Assembly (NCBI GenBank): GCA_031406795.1
Contig: JANOHV010000007.1
Location: forward strand, 1-64,000
Direction of reading: 5' to 3'
From: DATDCY01 sp031406795 [NCBI: Candidatus Rokuibacteriota bacterium]
GTDB lineage: Bacteria > JAUVQV01
DNA: 64,000 nt
Shown here: positions 17,377 through 57,570 of the stretch, in pieces
Layout: each line of letters opens with the position of its first letter
How positions within the stretch are numbered: the first letter of the stretch is position 1
Made by a program: the position numbers and the translations under genes
Notes under the pieces: generated by a model
Told to the model about the DNA's origin: nothing
Database searches by the model: none
Seen by the model: the letters and a program-made list of their open reading frames with translations, nothing else

Positions 17377-18168
17377 CTACGCGCGCCGTCGCACCGGAAC
17401 CGCCTCGCTGACCGCGAAGAGCGCCGCCGCGGCCACGACGATCGACGGCCCAGCCGGCGTGTCCCAGCGCAGGGAGCCCCAGAGACCGCCGCCGACGGCG
17501 AGGCAGCCCACGAGCGAGGCTGCGACGGCCATCGCCTCCGGCGAGCGGGCGAACCGCCGTGCGGCGGCGGCGGGGATGATCAGCAGCGCGGTGATCAGCA
17601 GCATGCCGACGACCTTCATCATCAGCGCCACGACCACGGCCAGCAGCAGCACGAAGGCCGACTGGATCACCTCGACGCGAGCGCCCTCGACGCGGGCCAG
17701 TTCCTCGTGCACGGTCATGGCGAGCAGGGGCTTCCAGAGAACGATGAGAGCGGCGAGCGCCGCGATACCGCCGCCGTAGATCCAGAGCAGGTCCCCACGC
17801 GTGACGGCGAGTACGTCGCCGAAGAGGTAGGCGATGAGGTCCACGCGCAGCGTTTCGAGAAAGGCCACGGTCACGAGGCCGAGCGAGAGGGCGCCGTGGG
17901 AGAGGATGCCGAGGATTGCGTCCCCGGGCAGCCGCTGACGACGCTGCAGGGCGAGCAGCAGCAGGGCGACGCCCGCGCAGACGGCGAGCACGCCGAGCGC
18001 GAGGTTCACGTGCAGCGCGAACCCGAGTGCCACCCCGAGCAGCGAGGCGTGGGCCAGCGTGTCGCCGAAGTAGGCCATCCGCCGCCAGATGACGAACGAG
18101 CCGAACGGTCCCGCGACAAGGGCCACCCCGGCCCCGGCGGCCAGCGCGCGCCAGAGAAAATCATCCAC
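17377..18168 (-). CDS. znuB: Zinc/manganese ABC transporter permease
   Basis: A 263-residue ABC-3 family permease. It has about eight hydrophobic segments and the conserved [19 protein letters not shown] near the N-terminus, [13 protein letters not shown], and [20 protein letters not shown]. It forms the membrane channel of a high-affinity zinc (or manganese) importer. The start overlaps the end of znuC by 8 nt, so the two are coupled. Zinc is favoured over manganese because the binding protein has a His-rich loop. Confidence 0.92.
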
Positions 18169-18910
18169 CGTGCCGGCCTCCGGCGTCGCAGGCGTCGTCC
18201 TGCCCGTGGCGGTGGGCGTAGAGCGCGAAGCCCGGGGCGCTCATCGGGAAGAGGCGCAGGTACGCCGGGTCGCTGGAGACGGCCAGGGGCGCCCCGGTGC
18301 AGCAGACCGTGCGGTTGAGACAGACGACGCGATCCGTGGAGCTCATCACGAGGTGCAGGTCGTGCGAGACCATCAGCACCCCGCACCCGCATTCGTCGCG
18401 GATGCTCGTGATGAGCGCGAAGAGTTCCTCCTGGCCCGCGAGGTCGACCCCCTGGCTCGGCTCGTCGAGCACCAGCAGTTCGGGATCGCGCAGCAGCGCG
18501 CGCGCCAGCAGCACGCGCTGCATCTCGCCGCCGGAGATCGACTGGATCGGGGTCTGCAGCGTCCGGGGCGCGCCGACCCGGACGAGCGCCTGCTCGACGC
18601 GGCCCCCGGCGTCCGGAGCCGCCATCGCGAGAAAGCGGCGGACCGTGAGGGGGAGGGCCGGGTCGACCGTGAGGCGCTGGGGCATGTAGCCGATCCGCAG
18701 GCCCGGTTTGAGCCAGAGCTCGCCGCGCCCCGGCTTGAGCAGCCCGAGCGCAACTCGCAGCAGGGTTGTTTTGCCGGCGCCGTTGGGCCCGATGAGGGTC
18801 ACGATCTCCCCGGCGGCCACCGCAAGCTCCACGCCCTCGAGCACGCGCGTGGCGCCGAGATCGACGGTGACGCCGCGCAAAGAGAGCAGCGGGCGGCCGG
18901 ATTTTTCCAT
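18161..18910 (-). CDS. znuC: Zinc ABC transporter ATP-binding protein
   Basis: A 249-residue ABC ATPase: Walker [11 protein letters not shown]-loop GYMPQRL, signature [16 protein letters not shown], Walker [13 protein letters not shown], and the switch histidine in VMVSHD-like [10 protein letters not shown]. The start is placed at [10 protein letters not shown], since the further-upstream Met lies nearly at the divergent znuA gene. The C-terminus is rich in His, Asp and Cys ([17 protein letters not shown]), suggesting metal binding. Energises ZnuB. Confidence 0.93.
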
Positions 18911-18974
18911 TTGAGGCATGCCGCAGTGTATCATTCGTCGCGTGCGCCGGATAACTCAAGGAGCAGGCACCAGG

Positions 18975-19943
18975 GTGCCGAGGAGCGGCCCGCTGGTTGC
19001 CCTCGTCGTCGCACTGCTGTGCGCGCCTTCCGCAACGGCATTCGCCGGCCCCCGGGTGGTGGTGACTCTGAAGCCGCTGCACTCGCTGGTGGCCGGGGTG
19101 ATGGCGGGGGTCGGCGAGCCCGAGTTGATCTTGCGCGGCGCCGGGTCGCCGCACACCCATCATCTCAAGCCCTCCGAGGCGCGGCTGCTGGAGCGCGCGC
19201 AGGTGATCTTCTGGGTCGGCGCGTCGCTGGAGACCTTCATGGAGAAGCCGCTGGCGGCGCTCGGCGCCCGTGCGCACATCGTCACGGTTCAGCAATCGCC
19301 GGGGATCGCGATCCTCCCGGCGAGAAGAGGAGGCGCCTGGGACAATCACGAGGGGCACGACGGCTCCGAACATGCTCGCGCGGGCCGGCAGGCGCCCGCC
19401 CGCCACGGGATCGAGGGCCAGACGCTGCCCGACGGCCACCTCTGGCTCGACCCGGCCAACGCGCGCGTCATCGCGCGGGAGGCGGCGGCGGTGCTTGGCC
19501 AGCTGGACCCTGAAAACCGTGCGCGGTACGCCGCGAATGCCGATGCCCTGGTCGCCCGCATCGACGCGCTCGACGCCGACTTGCGGACGACGCTCGCCCC
19601 GGTGCGGGAGATCCCATTCGTCGTCTTTCACGACGCGTACCAGTATTTCGAGGCGCGCTACGCGCTGCGGGCGGCCGGCTCGATCACGGTCAGCGCGGAG
19701 CGCGCGCCGGGGGCGAGGCGGGTGCGAGAGATCCGGGAGAGGATCGGGCGCCTCGGCGCACGCTGCGTCTTCAGCGAGCCGCAGTTCCCGTCCGCGATCC
19801 TCGGCACGCTCCTCGAGGGGACGGACACCCGCAGGGGAACGCTCGACCCGCTCGGCGCCGGATTGCCCGTGGGCCCGGAGGCTTATTTCACGCTGATGCG
19901 CGCGCTTGGTTCTTCGCTCGCGGAGTGTCTGCTGCCGCGCTGA
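18975..19943 (+). CDS. znuA: Zinc ABC transporter substrate-binding protein
   Basis: A cluster A-I solute-binding protein of about 322 residues. I choose the GTG at 18975: AAGGAG lies 11 nt upstream and translation gives an immediate signal peptide (VPRSGPLVALVVALLCAPSA). The ATG at 18918 would leave only 7 nt to divergent znuC. Metal ligands are visible: the His of KPLHSLVAGVM, SPHTHHLKPSEA, a His-rich acidic loop (NHEGHDGSEH) and DGHLWLDP. It captures zinc in the periplasm. The 64-bp region between znuC and znuA is the natural place for a Zur-type operator, but no clear box was recognised. Confidence 0.92.
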   Translation: MPRSGPLVALVVALLCAPSATAFAGPRVVVTLKPLHSLVAGVMAGVGEPELILRGAGSPHTHHLKPSEARLLERAQVIFWVGASLETFMEKPLAALGARAHIVTVQQSPGIAILPARRGGAWDNHEGHDGSEHARAGRQAPARHGIEGQTLPDGHLWLDPANARVIAREAAAVLGQLDPENRARYAANADALVARIDALDADLRTTLAPVREIPFVVFHDAYQYFEARYALRAAGSITVSAERAPGARRVREIRERIGRLGARCVFSEPQFPSAILGTLLEGTDTRRGTLDPLGAGLPVGPEAYFTLMRALGSSLAECLLPR

Positions 19944-22029: not shown

Positions 22030-23748
22030 ATGAAGAAGCAAGTGGTACCCGGGCGGAAGAGAATTCTCCTGAGCGGGGTTTTCGGCCCCTTCGGCGTCGA
22101 CGACGCGTACGGTCGCCGCGAGAACATCATGGAACTATTCCACAACCAGGTGACCCGCGAGCAGGGCGCGGCGTCGTTTCGCTTCCATCACCGCTCGTTC
22201 GGGCTCTATTTTCTCGCCGAGAACGTCGATGCCGATGTGACCGTGCTCGACTTCCCGTCCAACGAGGAGTTCGAGCGCGAACTGCGCAACGGCTACGACA
22301 TCGTCGGCATTTCGTTCATCGCGCCGAACTTCGTCAAGGCCCGCGAAATGGCGCGCCTGGTGCGGCAGCACGCGCCGGGAACGGTCGTGGTGCTCGGCGG
22401 CCACGGCGCGGCGATTGAGGGGGTGGAGCGGCTCATCGACTGCGACCACGTCATCAAGGGCGAGGGCGTCGCCTGGCTGCGTCGATTTCTCGGGCAAGAC
22501 CCCGAAGCGCCGATCCGCCATCCGGTGCTGCCGAGCACGGAGCGGCAGAGCATCCTGGGCGTGCCGCTGACCGGCGTCTGTTCGAGCCTGCTGGTGCCCG
22601 GCCTCGGGTGCGTCAACGGCTGCCGCTTCTGCAGCACCACGCACTTCTTCGGCAAGACTTACACATCGTACCTGGCGACGGGAAGGGCGATCTTCGAGAA
22701 CGCCGTGCGCATTGCCGACCGGCGCGGCACTGACTCTTTCTTCGTGATGGACGAGAACTTTCTCAAGGACACCAGCCGCGCCCGGGAGCTGCTCGAGCTG
22801 ATGGAGCGCGAGCAGCGCTTCTTCCGGTTCCAGATCTTCTCGTCCGCCGAGGCAATCATGGCCTTCGGGCTCGACGAGCTGGTGCGGTTGGGCGTGACGT
22901 TTATCTGGATGGGGGTCGAGACGAAGAGCCGGGAGGCGAACTTCACGAAGAACGCCGGCGTGGACGCGCGGTGGCTCGTGCGCGAGCTGCGAAATCGCGG
23001 GATCACCGTGCTGGCCTCCGGGATCCTCTGCATGGAGCACCACACCCAGCAAAACATCCAGGAGGACATCGATCACCTGGTCGACCTGGAGGCGGACTTC
23101 ACGCAGTTCATGCTGCTGACCCCCTTGCCGACCACCGTGCTCTACCAGGAGAAGAAGGCCAGCGGGCAGCTCCGCGAGGACCTGCCGTTCGAGGAATGGC
23201 ACGGCCAGAAGATGCTGAACTACGTCCACCCGCACTTTCCGGGAGACAGCGCGGAACGCTGGATCAGGCAGGCTTTCCGTCAGGAGTACGCGGAGAACTC
23301 CAGCTCCATCTATCGAGTCACGGAGACGGCCCTGCGCGGCTACCTGCACCTGGCGGGCCTGCAGGACCGGGATGGCTGTCTCGAGGCGCGATTGGCCCAG
23401 GCCCGCGAGCGACTCGCGGAGTACGCGCTGATCCTGCCCGAAATCGGCCGGCATGCGGTCAACAATCTGGAGCGGGAACGCGTGGCGGACCTCGCCCGTC
23501 GGCTGGTCTCGGTCCTGGGAAAACCCGGCCTGAAGGAACGGCTGATCCGGTTGGGAATCCGGGTCCTTGCGGCGCGCTGGCGCTGGCGTATCTGGTTGAT
23601 CGGGGATGCCATCCAGCCGAAGACCATCCGCACCCGGTACGCCGCAGCGGGGCGCGCGCGCGACGCCGATCCGCCGGTCGCCTGCCCGATGCCGGAGGCG
23701 CAGCCGGCCCGGCGTCGGGTCCGGGCGGCCGAGGTGGTCGTCAAGTAG
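22030..23748 (+). CDS. B12-binding-domain radical SAM protein
   Basis: A 572-residue protein. The N-terminal ~170 residues form a cobalamin-binding-like domain (DIVGISFIAPNFVKAREMAR, VVVLGGHGAAIEGVE). The radical SAM core follows with the cluster motif CVNGCRFC, then FVMDENFLKD and GVTFIWMGVE. A further ~200-residue C-terminal region is unassigned. Related proteins modify hopanoids, lipids or other small molecules; no specific substrate can be named. It lies alone between the peroxiredoxin and a two-component system. Confidence 0.85.
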   Translation: MKKQVVPGRKRILLSGVFGPFGVDDAYGRRENIMELFHNQVTREQGAASFRFHHRSFGLYFLAENVDADVTVLDFPSNEEFERELRNGYDIVGISFIAPNFVKAREMARLVRQHAPGTVVVLGGHGAAIEGVERLIDCDHVIKGEGVAWLRRFLGQDPEAPIRHPVLPSTERQSILGVPLTGVCSSLLVPGLGCVNGCRFCSTTHFFGKTYTSYLATGRAIFENAVRIADRRGTDSFFVMDENFLKDTSRARELLELMEREQRFFRFQIFSSAEAIMAFGLDELVRLGVTFIWMGVETKSREANFTKNAGVDARWLVRELRNRGITVLASGILCMEHHTQQNIQEDIDHLVDLEADFTQFMLLTPLPTTVLYQEKKASGQLREDLPFEEWHGQKMLNYVHPHFPGDSAERWIRQAFRQEYAENSSSIYRVTETALRGYLHLAGLQDRDGCLEARLAQARERLAEYALILPEIGRHAVNNLERERVADLARRLVSVLGKPGLKERLIRLGIRVLAARWRWRIWLIGDAIQPKTIRTRYAAAGRARDADPPVACPMPEAQPARRRVRAAEVVVK

Positions 23749-26148: not shown

Positions 26149-27270
26149 TCAACGCAGCGCGGCGGCAATCCAGCAGCCGAAGCCGGCAACCAGTCCGCAG
26201 GCCATCACCGGCATCGAGAGGCGCATCTCCCGCTTCACCCCGGAGAGCGACGTGAAGGGGGTACTGCCCGTGAAGTTCAGGGCGAGGAAGGAGCTGACGG
26301 CGCTCACCAGGAGCAGGGTCGCCGCCGCCTCGAGCCCCCGCCACCCGGTGACCGCCAGGAAGGCCAGGGACCAGAGCAGCCCGACGACCGCCCCCTTGAC
26401 GGCGAAGCTGCGCGTCGGCAGCCAGGGGAGGGCCAGCGGGGTGACGATCGTGCCGGTCGCCAACGCCCCGCCATACGCCAGGACCGCCGGGATCGCGGCG
26501 GCGGGGGAAAACTGGCCGTCGCGCCAGGCCGCGGCGAGCGCGAGCGGCGGCACAATCCAGGCCGAGCCCTTGAGGGCGATGACCAGTTCGATCGGGATCA
26601 GCACCAGGCGCTCCCGCAGCGTGAAGGTCAGCTCCCGCATCCGCGGCGTCGTCTGTTGGCCGCCGTCGAGGTAGCGGGGGATATCGGCCGCCTGGATCGC
26701 GGCAAAGTGCACCGAAAACCCCGTGCGCGCGCGGATCTCGAACGCCGAAACCCCGGGCGCCCCGAGCAGCGGCAGAATCAGGCGCCGGTGCCGCACGACC
26801 CTCGCCAGGCCGGAAGTCTCGATCCGGGTGATGAGTTCCTCGCTCCCGAAGGTGCCCTTGCCGGCGGCGCACCAGACGTTGATCCCGTGCGTCTCCAGCA
26901 CGAGGAGCCAAACGTTGCGCCCGACGAGCACCGCCCTGACGAGGTCGAAGCTCATCTTGTAGTTCGCCGTGACCAGCACCGGGTCGTCGGGGGTGGGAGC
27001 GCCGAAGGCATAAAGTCCCGGGGGAACCAGGTAGGACATGCGGCCGATTCCCCAACGCGCCTTCCAGGCCCCGAGGCGGTCGGCGCGGGCGAGCGCCGGC
27101 GAGATCACCGGCACCCGGCCCGCGGGCGTCTCCAGCCAGTGCTGGAATCCCGCCACCCGCTCGTCGACCTTCCCGCTGACCGCGGGAGTCTTCGGTCCTC
27201 AGCACGGTTCCTTGTCGACGGCGGGCCCGCACGCGGCGGCCGGCGCCATCGGCAGGAACTGTTGTGTCAT
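26149..27270 (-). CDS. hgcA: Mercury methyltransferase corrinoid protein HgcA, probable selenoprotein
   Basis: Membrane corrinoid protein that transfers a methyl group to Hg(II). The cobalamin-binding domain contains the diagnostic cap-helix motif NVWCAAGK, whose Cys is the cobalt ligand, and LVTANYKMSFDLVR upstream. About five to six hydrophobic segments form the C-terminal membrane domain. The uninterrupted frame begins at a GTG (27156). In the same frame upstream lies an ATG (27270), 23 codons ending Glu-Pro-Cys, and an in-frame TGA (27199-27201) followed by Gly-Pro-Lys. I read the gene as one 373-residue protein with selenocysteine at position 24 (Cys23-Sec24). If TGA is a real stop, HgcA starts at 27156 and lacks its N-terminal cysteines. 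It begins 13 nt after the cysteine-rich lipoprotein gene. Confidence 0.93.
27166..27190 (-). promoter_or_regulatory. Candidate bacterial SECIS hairpin inside hgcA
   Basis: Directly downstream of the in-frame TGA the RNA can fold as GAC-UCCCGC-(GGUCA)-GCGGGA-AG-GUC. The upper stem is a perfect 6 bp. The loop starts with G, contains GGUC, and begins 18 nt after the UGA. The E. coli fdhF SECIS has a GGUC loop about 19 nt after its UGA. Loop G identity and distance both fit bacterial SECIS rules. Fold stability and SelB binding were not computed. Confidence 0.6.
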
Positions 27271-27283
27271 CGCAACGCCGTCC

Positions 27284-27751
27284 CTATTTTGCCTGGTGCA
27301 GCTGCATCCCGCACATGCAGGCGCCGGGCTTGTCCGAGAGGGTGTTGCAGCCGCAGGAACCGCCGCAGTTGCAGAAGTAAAGGCCGCTGCCCTCGAGGTT
27401 GAGCCGCTTGATCGGCTTGCCGCAGCCGCACTTGGCGTGGTCCTTCGGGTCGATCTTGCAGGTGCAGGTCGGGCCGCAGGTGCAAGCCAGCGCGGTGTTG
27501 CCCTCCGTGAAGACCACGTGGCCGCCCGCCATCTCCTTACCGCAGGTGCACTTGCCCGGCTTCAGGGATACGGTGTTGCACTTGCACTCGGGGCCGCAGG
27601 CGCACCAGTAGACAACCGACGACCCGTGCGACCCGCCCTCCATGGAACCGTGCCCCTTGTGCTTCCCCTGATGCCCCCCGCCGTGGTGGGCGCAGGCGCC
27701 GAGGACGAAGGCGGCGGCGATCAGGACGAATGCTGCTGCGAATCTCTTCAT
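27284..27751 (-). CDS. Cysteine-rich lipoprotein with three metallothionein-like repeats, first gene of the hgc operon
   Basis: A 155-residue protein. Residues 1-20 are a lipoprotein signal peptide with lipobox LGAC, so Cys20 is acylated and the protein is exported. A His/Gly-rich linker (AHHGGGHQGKHKGHG) follows. Three repeats then have identical spacing, CxC-x3-CxC-x9-CxCG, with Cys at 50/52/56/58/68/70, 90/92/96/98/108/110 and 127/129/133/135/145/147: 18 thiols. This is a soft-metal-binding design. AAGGAGG precedes the ATG, a promoter lies at 27809-27837, and hgcA follows after 13 nt. I infer a periplasmic-side Hg(II) or other thiophilic metal trap or chaperone linked to HgcAB. The family name is unknown to me. 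Confidence 0.88.
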   Translation of the reverse strand: MKRFAAAFVLIAAAFVLGACAHHGGGHQGKHKGHGSMEGGSHGSSVVYWCACGPECKCNTVSLKPGKCTCGKEMAGGHVVFTEGNTALACTCGPTCTCKIDPKDHAKCGCGKPIKRLNLEGSGLYFCNCGGSCGCNTLSDKPGACMCGMQLHQAK

Positions 27752-52952: not shown

Positions 52953-54388
52953 CGCAGCAGCGCCTGCTCCAGAATGGCCTTGAGTTTGTCGCGGAGCTTT
53001 GCCGTCGCGGCCTCGCTCTCGTTGAGTTTGGCGAGCAGCTCGGCGGGATCGCCGTGGTCTTCCTCGACGGTGTGGGGATTCTTGATGTCGAGGTTGTAGC
53101 CGCGGGCCTTGATGTCGTCGATCGTGACCTTCCAGGCGATCTCGTTCTTCTCGCGCTTGTCCCACCAGTCGATGCAGGGCTTGAAGTGCTCGAAGCGGAT
53201 CGGCCTGGTCATGGAGTAGGCCTTCTGGCCGTCGGGGACGCGGTGCTCGTAGAACCAGACGGTTTGGGTCGGCGTCCCCTTCTCGAAGAAGAGCAGGTTG
53301 GTGCCGATGGAGGCGTAGGGCTTGAAGACGCTGTTGGGCAGCCGGACGATGGTGTGGAGGTTGCACTCCTCCAGCAGGTGCTCCTTGAGGCGCGTCTTGA
53401 CCCCCTCGCCGAAGAGCGTGCCGTCGGGCAAGACCACGGCGGCGCGGCCCTGGGACTTGAGCAGGCGCACGATGAGGGCGAGGAAGAGGTCGGCGGTCTC
53501 GCGCGTCTGGAACTGCTACGGGAAGTTGCTCTCGATGCCGTCTTCCTCGCGGCCACCGAAGGGGGGATTGGTCAGGACGATGTCCACCCGGTCGGACTGG
53601 GTGTAGCTGGTGTAGGGGCGCGCCAGGGTGTTGTCGTGACGGACGAAGGAGGGGTCCTCGATGCCGTGGAGCAGCATGTTCGTCACGCAGAGCATGTGCG
53701 GGAGCTGTTTCTTCTCGGTGGCGCGCAGGGCTCCCTGCATCTTACGTTCGGCGGCCGGGGTCTTCACGTAGCGCTCGCGCATGTGGCGGATGGCGCAGGT
53801 GAGGAAGCCGCCGGTGCCGCATGCGGGATCGTAGAGGATCTCGCCGGGCTTCGGGTCGATGCGGTCGGCCATGAAGGCGGTGACGGCGCGCGGGGTGTAG
53901 TACTCGCCCGCGTTGCCGGCGCTCTGGAGGTCGGTGAGGACCTGTTCGTAGATGTCGCCGAAGTGCTGACGCTCGCTGAGGTTGTTGAAGTCGATGCCGT
54001 TGATCTTGTTGATCACCTGGCGCATCAGCTGACCGGACTTCATGCAGTTGTAGGCGTCCTCGAAGACGTCGCGCACGACGCGGCGCCGGCCGTCCCGGGC
54101 GACGCCGGAGAGTTCCTTAAGGGTCGGGAAGAGCTTGTCGTTGATGAAGGCGAGCAGCGCATCGCCGGTCAGCCCCTCGGGGTCGGCGGCCCAGGCGCGC
54201 CACTGGAGCTTGGCCGGGATCGGCGAGCGGTAGCCCTTCTGGAGCTGCTCCAGCTCCTGGTCCTGGTCGTCGATGATCTTGAGGAAGAACATCCAGCAGA
54301 GCTGGGAGATGCGCTGGGCGTCGCCGTCGACGCCGACGTCCTGGCGAATGATGTCCTGGATGGATTTGACGGTGGTGCGGACGGACAA
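52949..54388 (-). pseudogene. hsdM: Type I restriction-modification methyltransferase with in-frame amber stop
   Basis: N6-adenine methyltransferase of about 479 codons. The N-terminal HsdM domain, SAM motif I (LYDPACGTGGFLTCAI) and catalytic LTNPPFGG are present. Codon 291 is TAG (53516-53518), between GIESNFP and QFQTRETADLFLALIVRLLK, where a Ser or Ala is normal in relatives as I recall. The frame continues perfectly afterwards to the natural stop. The truncated product keeps the catalytic motifs but loses about 190 C-terminal residues. Real nonsense mutation, suppression or base-call error are the options. Confidence 0.88.
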
Positions 54389-54444
54389 GCTGCTTCCCTC
54401 GCTCTTCCTTCTTCGGATATTGCCAGGAGTCGACTTTCCCAGGC

Positions 54445-54734
54445 TCAGGCGCGGTCGATCCAGTACGACGGTTTGCGATGCAAATGCGCTACGGCAACCA
54501 CAATCAGCGTTTCGCCATCCAGGCCGTTGATCATTCCGTAAGGGAAACGATTTAGCAGACAGCGCCGCAGTCCAGGATCGATCTCCGGGCAGCCGAGAGG
54601 AAAGGTAACCGATCTGCGGATCGCGCGATCGAACTCGTCGAGGAAGTCGTACCCGAGGTTGACTGCCTGCGTATTGTACCAGACGAAAGCGTCGTCAAGT
54701 TCATGCTGGGCGGCCGCGAGAAGCCGGACTTCAT
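54445..54734 (-). pseudogene. ParE/RelE-type toxin with a frameshift at codon 3
   Basis: The body of the toxin reads EVRLLAAAQHELDDAFVWYN, then GYDFLDEFDRAIRRSV and GMINGLDGETLIVVAVAHLH, a standard ParE/RelE fold of about 95 residues. The only start codon, ATG at 54732-54734 overlapping the antitoxin stop, is in a different frame. One missing base in ATGAAG-TCCGG would restore M-K-V-R-L-L. No other start lies in the body frame before the conserved part, so the toxin is probably dead. Confidence 0.7.
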
Positions 54735-54952
54735 GGATGGTGATACTTGCCCATCACGGTCTGATAGTCTTCAGAGGCCGTCCGGCCGCCCAAGTATACG
54801 GCCCAGCGCTTGCGGGCTTCATCCGCCCAGATCCGATCAATCTCTGGGTCTGGCTTGTCCAAGTCCGTGAGGATCGATTCCACGAGGTGCAACTTCTCCA
54901 TGTCGGACAACGCACGGATCTCCTCTGCCAATTTCTCAGTTGAAGTCGTCAT
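54731..54952 (-). CDS. Addiction-module antitoxin (RelB/StbD-like, TIGR02574 type)
   Basis: A 73-residue protein with EIRALSDMEKLHLVESILTD and RIWADEARKRWAVYLGGR, the helix pattern of addiction-module component proteins that wrap ParE/RelE toxins. GGAGA precedes the ATG. The stop overlaps the toxin start. It remains intact although the toxin is frameshifted. The pair sits between the hsdR and hsdM genes of the type I system, so it was probably inserted there. Confidence 0.8.
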   Translation of the reverse strand: MTTSTEKLAEEIRALSDMEKLHLVESILTDLDKPDPEIDRIWADEARKRWAVYLGGRTASEDYQTVMGKYHHP

Positions 54953-55020
54953 TGCGTCTCTCCTTGTTCGCTGTGTACCTCAATATAATCGAGGCTCCTG
55001 CAAATGTCTTGCTTGTGGTT

Positions 55021-55096
55021 CGACAGGCCCACCACGAACGGGATTATCGCTGAAGAATCAATATTCCGCCGTTCGCCCTGAGCAAGCGAAGGGTAA
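55021..55096. repeat. Second locus of the CCGTTCG/CGAACGG dispersed repeat
   Basis: CGACAGGCCCACCACGAACG (55021) and CCGTTCGCCCTGAGCAAGCG (55072) match the two ends of the repeat at 20041-20135 but in the opposite relative arrangement, with about 30 bp between. It lies between the hsdR end and the antitoxin gene and may mark an insertion boundary. Confidence 0.5.
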
Positions 55097-55105
55097 TAAC
55101 TATAC

Positions 55106-57570
55106 CTATGCAACGGCGTAGAGGGCGGATTGGAGTTCGTGGACGGCCCGCTCGAAGCCCTCTCGGCCGCCGAAGCGCCGCAGGAGCTGGACCGGGGTGC
55201 CCATGGTATCGAAAGGGGCGATCTTGAGGATCTGCGGGTCGTCGAGATCGGCAATCCCCTGGTCCTGGTACTTCTGCAGCAGCGCTTCGAGCACGGCGCG
55301 GGCCTGTTCGCCGTAGCGGGTGAAAACGTCGCGCTTGCGGACGCTGTCGACGCGCTCGCGCCGGGTGAGCGGCGGCTGGTCGAAGGCGACGTGGCAGATC
55401 AGGTCGAAGGCATCGAGGTCTTTCCCCACCTCGTCCGCGAGCGGCTCCAGCAAGAGACCCTCGTTTTCCAACTCCTCGATGACCGCTTCCTTGCGCTCGG
55501 CGGTGTTCCAGCGCCCGAGGAAGTCATCGAGGCTGGCGAAGTGCTTGCGCAGCGTGCGCTTGGAGTAGTCGCGGAGGCTCTCGGTGACGAGCTTCCCGTT
55601 TTCGTCGAGGTATTCGATGCGCTCGGTAAGGATGCGGACCTCGTGGCCGCGGATGAAGTACTTGGACGGGTGCTCGTTGGCGTTGCCGGGAGGAAGGCTG
55701 ATATCAGGAGGCCAGGGCTGGCCGTCGACGATTACTTCGTCGTTGCCCGGTTCGGGCGGAATAGGGTCTTCATCATCGACAGGCGGCGGCACATCGTCCG
55801 GTGGACTGACCGGATCCCCATCCCCCGGCTCGTAGATCTGCACCGGCTCGCCGTCGAAGTCCGGATCGGCAAAGTGGTTCGTGGCCTTGCGGAAATCGAT
55901 CAGCGTGAAATAGAACTTCTTCGTGTCCTCATGCACGCGGGTGCCGCGCCCGACGATCTGCTTGAACTCGGTCATGGAGCCGACTTCACGATCGAGCACG
56001 ATCAGCCGGCAGGTCTGGGCGTCGACGCCGGTGGAGAGCAGCCGCGAGGTGGTGACGATCACCGGAAATCTCGCTTCAGGGTCGATGAAATTGCCGAGCG
56101 CGCCTGGCCCTCGGGGTCGTCGCCCGTGATGCGCATGACGTAGCGCGGGTTCTGGAGCGTCAGGTCCTGGTTTTCGTTGATCAGCGCCTGACGCATCCGG
56201 GCGGCGTGTTCGGTGTCCACGCAGAAGATGATGGTCTTCTGATAGCGATCGCCGCTCTCCCTCAGGAACTCGGTCACCCGGCGGGCGACGCGCTTCGTGC
56301 GCTCGTCGATCACGAGATTGCGGTCGAAATCCTTCTGGTTATAAATCCGGTCTTCAATCTCGTAGCCGTACGTGTCGGTCTCGCCGCGGGTGGGGCGATA
56401 GCCCTCCACATCGACGTCGAAGTGGACCTTCACCGCCTTGTAGGGCGCGAGGAAGCCGTCGCGGATCCCTTCTCTGAGCGAGTAGGTGTATACCGGTTCG
56501 CCGAAGTAGTGGATGTTGGAGACGTATTCGGTCTCTTTCGGCGTGGCGGTGAGACCGATCTGCGTGGCGGAGGAGAAATGGTCGAGGATCTCGCGCCAAG
56601 CGGAATCCGCTGCCGCACTGCCGCGGTGGCATTCGTCGATGACAATGAGGTCGAAGAAATCGGGAGAAAGTTCGCGGAAGAGCTTCTGGCGCTCCTCCGG
56701 GCCGGTGATTGCCTGGTAGAGGGCGAGGTAGATCTCGTAGGAGGTGTCGATGCGCCGCTGCTTGCGATCAACGGCGGTGGGGAGCCGGACCTCGCTGCCG
56801 TCCTCGCGTTCGATGGTCTTCGAGGATGTGCTGAGCTTGGCCATCGCGGCGCCGAAGGGACGGAAGTCGTTGACCATCGTCTGGTCGATCAGAACGTTGC
56901 GGTCGGCGAGGTAGAGAATGCGCTTTCTGCGGCCGGCCTTCCAGAGGCGCCAGATGATCTGAAAGGCCGTGTACGTCTTTCCGGTTCCGGTGGCCATGAC
57001 GAGGAGGAGGCGATTCTGTCCCGCTGCGATGGCCTCGATGGCCTTGTTGATCGCGATGCGCTGGTAGTATCGCGGCTCCGTGCCTCCCGGATCCTCGTAG
57101 TAATTCTGGAGGACGACCTCCTCCTGGGCTGGTGCGAGGCTCTTCCAAGTTCGATATCTGGACCAAAGCCTTTCGGGGGAGGGAAAGGCGTCGAGGGAAA
57201 GGTTCGTCTCGGTCTGCTCGCCGAGGCCGGTCCGGTCGTGGAAGACAAAGCCGCTGCCGTTGGATGTAAAGACGAACGGGATATCGAGGGTAGTCGCGTA
57301 TTCCAGAGCCTGCTGCATCCCGGCGCCGACGGCGTTGTTGCCGTCCTTGGCCTCGATCAGTGCGAGGGGGATGTTCGGCTTGTGGTAGAGGATGTAATCG
57401 GCCCGTTTGGCCTTGCCCCGGGTGACCAGCTTGCCGCGGACGATGATCCGCCCTTTGGTGAACCCGACCTCCTCGCGAATCTGGGAATGGACATCCCATC
57501 CCGCTTTGACAAGAGCGGGAGTGATGAACTTGGTGCAGATGTCCCGCTCGCTGAGGTCCTTTACGGCCAT
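55106..57570 (-). pseudogene. hsdR: Type I restriction endonuclease subunit with frameshift
   Basis: About 820 residues in two frames. The N-terminal PD-(D/E)xK nuclease region ([20 protein letters not shown]) is followed by helicase motifs: Walker [18 protein letters not shown] box [31 protein letters not shown], and after the shift LLSTGVDAQTCRLIVLDREV and FKQIVGRGTRVHED. Near 56095 one base is missing: the frame that reads GQARSAISS should read [20 protein letters not shown]. The gap is not in a homopolymer. Translocation and cleavage activity would be lost unless frameshifting occurs. Confidence 0.88.

What the first reader, a model, noticed from the sequence alone, without database searches (positions are those of the whole stretch)
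27166..27270. HgcA appears to be a selenoprotein: in-frame UGA after Cys with a SECIS-like hairpin
Seen: from the ATG at 27270 the hgcA frame is open for 23 codons ending in Cys, meets TGA at 27199-27201, and continues without interruption through the whole corrinoid protein. The UGA is followed at +18 by a hairpin with a 6-bp perfect stem and a GGUCA loop; the E. coli fdhF SECIS has a GGUC loop at about +19. Known: bacterial SECIS elements lie directly 3' of UGA with a conserved loop G at a limited distance, and Sec usually replaces Cys. Inference: residues 23-24 are a Cys-Sec pair, and a selenolate next to a thiol would be an unusually strong Hg(II) ligand. I know of no described selenocysteine HgcA. 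Alternative: a 23-codon leader followed by a GTG start at 27156.
Basis: partly seen in the sequence, partly recalled or inferred. Interest (0 to 1): 0.95.

Follow-up and report, generated by a model that had tools for sequence, protein, structure and literature searches.

The report
Selenium-containing mercury-methylation protein HgcA gene
The gene for HgcA, the protein that helps bacteria make methylmercury, carries here a UGA codon that is very probably read as selenocysteine rather than stop, a form of HgcA already reported in print and seen here in many related bacteria.

Summary
On the minus strand an ATG at 27270 opens 23 codons ending in TGC, then TGA (27201-27199), a hairpin (27187-27171, loop GGUCA, 17 nt from the UGA), and in frame the HgcA core (27156-26149, NF040863, 428 bits), with hgcB behind it. 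The window's hairpin alone is weak (z -0.27). Comparison decides. Over 131 distinct HgcA loci including the window, all 71 in-frame stops at codons -20 to -10 before the core are TGA; 69 belong to this site. Three relatives have TGC there and no rule-matching hairpin. Published bacterial SECIS rules are met by 31 of 34 TGA loci (7.5 expected from shuffles) and 34 of 35 further ones (10.7 expected). 32 of 33 TGA-form genomes hold SelB, SelA or tRNA-Sec, but 41 of 46 non-TGA genomes hold SelB or tRNA-Sec, so that test does not discriminate. HgcA as a selenoprotein (motif CU) is already listed in a 2026 review citing papers of 2008 and 2023 (PMC13188914, passages). So: real, read correctly, a known kind. 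Extra: a second, more distal in-frame TGA site in 10 loci.

The parts
27202..27270 (-). Piece of hgcA before the UGA: 23 codons, ATG 27270 to TGC 27204-27202
   Evidence: Read directly; residues -2 and -1 before the TGA are Pro and Cys in 9 of 9 clade members
27199..27201 (-). In-frame TGA, probable selenocysteine codon
   Evidence: 69 of 131 distinct loci have TGA at this site, and no TAA or TAG lies in columns -20 to -10
27171..27187 (-). Bacterial-SECIS-like hairpin, 6 bp, loop GGUCA, 17 nt after the UGA
   Evidence: the 6 pairs are kept in 54 of 54 cells of 9 clade members
26149..27156 (-). hgcA core piece after the UGA (ORF of 335 aa from GTG), HgcA family
   Evidence: NF040863 428.2 bits, PF03599 41.8 bits
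25844..26134 (-). hgcB, ferredoxin partner, 96 aa, with GVGC (Cys form) and a C-terminal CC
   Evidence: NF040864 125.7 bits, cut-off 99; sequence
27284..27751 (-). Cys-rich small ORF just upstream (its stop TAG ends 13 nt before the hgcA ATG); no family found; may or may not belong with hgcAB
   Evidence: 0 Pfam and 0 NCBIfam matches; no tblastn match at 1e-3 in the 80 loci L001-L080

Best explanation
The window holds a selenocysteine-coding hgcA. Translation most likely starts at ATG 27270; at the UGA 27201-27199 the hairpin just downstream recruits SelB with Sec-tRNA, and Sec is inserted next to a Cys in an N-terminal tail ahead of the corrinoid-binding domain. The Cys-Sec pair probably binds Hg(II) or methylmercury and hands it on, in the way proposed for the C-terminal Cys pair of HgcB. 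Shown: codon, frame, hairpin, comparative conservation, Cys counterparts. Inferred: Sec insertion in this host, the start codon, and the role of the pair.
For: TGA only, never TAA or TAG, among 71 stops in codons -20 to -10, of which 69 belong to the site (131 loci; the other two frames hold all three stops); a Cys codon before the TGA in 31 of 34 and 35 of 35 further loci; TGC in its place in L116, L117, L125; SECIS rules met by 31 of 34 (expected 7.5; non-TGA relatives 10 of 47) and 34 of 35 (expected 10.7); pairs 54 of 54 in the window's clade, slid controls 20-40 of 54; at least 6 changes of TGA state forced on the HgcA tree; in 6 of 34 the first ATG/GTG/TTG after the TGA lies at residue 15 or later, where the HgcA model begins; SelB, SelA or tRNA-Sec in 32 of 33 TGA-form genomes; published family.
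Against: The window's own genome is not held, so its Sec machinery is untested; 40 of 45 picked ORFs were scanned and no Sec-machinery family appeared in the rows shown; no tRNA was found in the window. GTG 27156, with a GGGAAGG stretch before it by eye, could start the core without the UGA. The window's hairpin alone is no better than shuffles. SelB is about as common in non-TGA genomes (39 of 46, against 29 of 33). One TGA-form genome, G018, showed none of the three markers. Three TGA members have Gln or Gly, not Cys, before the TGA; 3 of 34 and 1 of 35 fail the hairpin rules.
Confidence: 0.93

Rival explanations
1. The UGA is an ordinary stop of a short upstream ORF, and HgcA starts downstream at GTG 27156.
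For: The piece from GTG 27156 gives the full NF040863 match; 28 of 34 TGA loci have an in-frame ATG/GTG/TTG before residue 15.
Against: Six of 34 have none before residue 15, L063 none before residue 68; residues on both sides of the TGA are kept with synonymous codon changes in the clade of 9; only TGA occurs; TGC replaces it in three relatives.
Confidence: 0.04
2. The gene is decayed: a nonsense change in an old Cys codon.
For: TGA is one base from TGC and TGT.
Against: The same TGA at 69 of 131 loci in several lineages, beside intact cores and hairpins, is not decay; TAA and TAG do not appear at the site.
Confidence: 0.01
3. The organism reads TGA as a normal amino acid throughout (another genetic code).
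For: None found.
Against: 25 of 45 ORFs picked by table 11 with codon-composition filters end in TGA, hgcA and hgcB among them.
Confidence: 0.005

Closest known systems
Selenoprotein HgcA (NF040863, motif CU, WP_250697417.1, listed in PMC13188914 with refs 61 and 63; ref 63 is Haft and Gwadz 2023)
   Same: Same family; Cys followed by UGA fits the listed motif CU
   Different: The listed protein was not compared here; the window copy is from an unnamed organism, its core 67% identical to the nearest locus found (L081)
Cys-form HgcA of relatives L116, L117, L125
   Same: Same tail context and spacing to the core
   Different: TGC instead of TGA and no rule-matching hairpin; cores 54-57% identical to the window's
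Selenoprotein HgcB (NF040864, motif GVGU, PMC13188914)
   Same: Partner protein, also listed in a Sec form
   Different: The window's HgcB has GVGC, as do 74 of 78 HgcB found behind the first-set hgcA; 2 of the others have GAGC or GEGC and 2 were unreadable

Membership tests
HgcA (mercury methylation corrinoid protein) | Match above the curated cut-off of NF040863 | tested here: met
   428.2 bits against 275, for the piece after the UGA
HgcA (mercury methylation corrinoid protein) | Conserved cap-helix Cys (C93 in ND132; motif wording recalled) | tested here: met
   NVWCAAGKG in the core translation; C93 named in a PMC11588087 passage
HgcA (mercury methylation corrinoid protein) | hgcB directly downstream | tested here: met
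   NF040864 at 26134-25844
HgcA (mercury methylation corrinoid protein) | Mercury methylation activity | not testable with these tools
   No experiment
Bacterial selenoprotein gene | In-frame UGA with conserved coding on both sides | tested here: met
Bacterial selenoprotein gene | Cys in place of the UGA in homologues | tested here: met
   TGC in L116, L117, L125
Bacterial selenoprotein gene | SECIS by the rules of PMC13188914 (loop 3-9 nt, stem 4-16 bp, G in the first two loop positions, 16-37 nt from the UGA, energy at most -7.5) | tested here: met
   The window meets them (rules read); weak alone, since 38% of its shuffles pass; the upper stem limit of 16 bp was not coded, the window's stem is 6 bp
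Bacterial selenoprotein gene | Host has selA, selB, selD and tRNA-Sec | not testable with these tools
   Own genome not held; 32 of 33 TGA-form relatives have SelB, SelA or tRNA-Sec; selD not searched
Bacterial selenoprotein gene | Selenium shown in the protein | not testable with these tools
   No experiment

The most novel reading that the evidence does not exclude
HgcA tails have acquired selenocysteine at two different places: next to the core (window type) and in a distal tail motif 36-63 codons before the core (10 loci from the search of L001's order), both beside a Cys. The N-terminal Cys-Sec pair would then be a recurrent, selenium-strengthened mercury relay of HgcA, matching the Cys pair at the HgcB tail.
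Probability: 0.35. Interest if true: 0.6.

Novelty: new member of a known kind. Interest (0 to 1): 0.35.

Why it matters
If Sec sits in HgcA of many environmental methylators, their mercury methylation may depend on selenium supply, and gene callers that stop at UGA would lose the N-terminal tail (inference). The principle is in print; this copy and the survey add breadth (69 of 131 loci, a set chosen by likeness to the window), repeated switching between TGA and other codons, and a possible second site.

Tried and rejected
Single-sequence stability of the hairpin: not above shuffles, so not used as evidence alone. Sec machinery as a discriminating test: SelB in 29 of 33 TGA-form and 39 of 46 non-TGA genomes; tRNA-Sec at E <= 1e-9 in 27 of 33 (my count from the rows) and 35 of 46 (run with stricter filters): consistent, not discriminating. 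The tRNA-Sec search at E <= 0.001 rings in all 14 control genomes, so only strong hits were counted. Altered genetic code: rejected. Viral contigs: no HgcA relative. Link of the upstream Cys-rich ORF with hgcA: no match in the 80 loci L001-L080. Zhang and Gladyshev 2008 (PMC2398784), cited by the review for HgcA: four CODH/ACS-type terms do not occur in its main text; nothing else of it was seen. suffers from my orientation error (minus-strand loci read the wrong way round) and is superseded as a whole. An earlier count gave 38-63 codons for the second site; the checked range is 36-63.

Full report
What is there. The minus strand carries, in order, a Cys-rich small ORF (27751-27284), an ATG at 27270, 23 codons ending in TGC, TGA at 27201-27199, and in the same frame the HgcA core (ORF 27156-26149), then hgcB (26134-25844). 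The core matches NF040863 at 428.2 bits (cut-off 275), beginning at residue 15 of the ORF; HgcB matches NF040864 at 125.7 (cut-off 99). hgcA and hgcB end in TGA, as do 25 of 45 ORFs picked across the window, so TGA is a normal stop in this organism.

The hairpin. After the UGA come 11 nt, then TCCCGC-GGTCA-GCGGGA (27187-27171). It fits the bacterial SECIS rules quoted in PMC13188914 section 5 (read): apical loop of 5 nt, 6 bp, G in the first two loop positions, 17 nt from the UGA, energy below -7.5 kcal/mol. Alone it proves little: z -0.27, and of 60 shuffles 38% pass (15% with a GG/GU loop).

Comparison, first set. The core piece found 261 relatives among the candidate stretches of genome contigs, of which the tool kept the best 80. 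In 33 of 80, plus the window, TGA stands 14 to 16 codons before the core start, at exactly -15 in 31 of the 34. The residue before it is Cys in 31 of 34, Gln in 2, Gly in 1. Thirty-one of 34 meet the SECIS rules (expected 7.5 from shuffles) and 30 with a GG or GU loop (expected 3.3); at the same ungapped offset in the non-TGA relatives 10 and 4 of 47 do. In the window's clade of 9 the six pairs hold in 54 of 54 cells, with CG, TA, TG and AT at one pair; slid controls give 20-40 of 54. In 22 other members the five inner pairs hold in 110 of 110 cells and a sixth, outer pair in 11 of 22 (121 of 132 in all; slid controls 39-78). Non-TGA relatives give 96 and 113 of 282 at the two offsets. L043, L063 and L065 were left out of these pair counts because their spacing differs.

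Comparison, second set. Searches of 48 genomes of one family (39 with a match) and 136 of one order (62 with a match) gave the best 30 loci each, 60 in all, 50 of them distinct from the first set. Thirty-five of the 50 have the TGA at -15, all after Cys; 34 of 35 meet the SECIS rules (expected 10.7), 33 with GG or GU (expected 5.5). L116, L117 and L125 have TGC at that position, with KPPC before and GPP after it, and no rule-matching hairpin. The other 12 have no stop there. Over the 131 distinct loci the 71 in-frame stops in columns -20 to -10 are all TGA: 69 at this site (66 at -15, two at -16, one at -14) and two that look unrelated by eye (L072 at -16, L073 at -19). The two other frames hold mixed stops (7 TGA, 7 TAA, 2 TAG; 22 TGA, 14 TAA, 3 TAG). 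The loci were gathered by likeness to the window, so 69 of 131 is not a rate for all HgcA.

History. On a tree of 81 cores (first set and window) the window lies in a TGA-only clade of 9 with Geobacteraceae and Desulfuromonadales rows (100/100); the TGA label needs 8 changes, at least 6 forced by well-supported branches, where shuffled labels need about 26. So the trait is inherited within clades and has switched repeatedly, as Sec/Cys sites do; the non-TGA rows are a mixture of Cys and other tails. The nearest core found is 67% identical (L081). The copy looks intact and maintained, not decayed.

Host machinery. SelB was found in 29 of 33 TGA-form genomes. tRNA-Sec above 70 bits was found in 26 of 33 (counted from the rows). 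SelA was searched only in the 9 that lacked SelB or such a tRNA hit, and found in 7. Together 32 of 33 have at least one marker; G018 has none of the three. Of 46 non-TGA genomes 39 have SelB and 35 tRNA-Sec, 41 either; the result is consistent with Sec but does not discriminate. The hosts of the second set were not tested, and the window's own genome is not held.

Mechanism. Shown: codon, frame, hairpin, conservation, Cys counterparts. Inferred: Sec insertion through SelB, and the role. Cooper et al. [quoted passage not shown] A Cys-Sec pair in a tail of HgcA could do the same with stronger mercury binding; it could instead serve in reduction or protection. I find the relay the likeliest (inference).

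What is known. PMC13188914 lists HgcA (NF040863, motif CU, WP_250697417.1, refs 61 and 63) and HgcB (motif GVGU, ref 63) as selenoproteins (passages, section 5, part of the reference list and abstract seen). PMC11588087 says that some hgcA and hgcB homologues may be selenoproteins, citing Haft and Gwadz 2023 (passages seen). That 2023 paper is not held, so how far its survey went is unknown to me. Searches for HgcA with selenocysteine, selenoprotein and UGA codon found 3, 4 and 1 papers. The window's HgcB has GVGC; so do 74 of 78 HgcB found behind the first-set hgcA, 2 have GAGC or GEGC, and 2 were masked or cut.

A second site. In L135, L137, L139 and L141-L147 a TGA follows Cys and precedes PPKAPPGA (PPKAPPGV in L142, PPVAPPGA in L141, PPSAPPGA in L146 and L147), 36 to 63 codons before the core, with a rule-matching hairpin whose loop begins 16-18 nt downstream. 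In L135, L137 and L139 it is the nearest in-frame stop before the core; in L141-L147 it is in frame with no stop up to the core match. The loci were chosen by their open-frame length, and 3 of its 10 stretches (L148-L150) showed no such motif, so 10 is not a rate. No shuffle control was run for this site and its hosts were not tested for Sec machinery. Whether it is the same tail site moved by insertions or a separate gain is open.

Noticed in passing
L135, L137, L139, L141-L147 (from the search of L001's order): A second in-frame TGA after Cys, 36-63 codons before the HgcA core, with a SECIS-rule hairpin 16-18 nt downstream; Cys pairs nearer the core are seen in L135 and L139.
   Followed up: partly
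27284-27751 (-): Cys-rich small protein with repeated CxCG-like stretches directly before hgcA; no Pfam or NCBIfam match and no match in the 80 loci L001-L080.
   Followed up: partly
27190-27201 (-): The residues after the UGA are G-P-K, which by eye fits the U-x-P-K wording of a selenoprotein family named UXPK-star in PMC13188914; kinship not tested.
   Followed up: no
53516-57570 (-): Type I restriction-modification genes; HsdR-like parts lie in two abutting ORFs (56059-57570 and 55106-56062) and the N6-methylase match covers only 147 of 311 profile positions, so these may be broken.
   Followed up: no
22030-23748 (+): B12-binding radical SAM protein about 2.4 kb from hgcA, followed by a sensor kinase and a response regulator.
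   Followed up: no
17377-19943: Zinc-type ABC transporter genes resembling znuB, znuC and znuA, each somewhat below the curated cut-off of those models.
   Followed up: no
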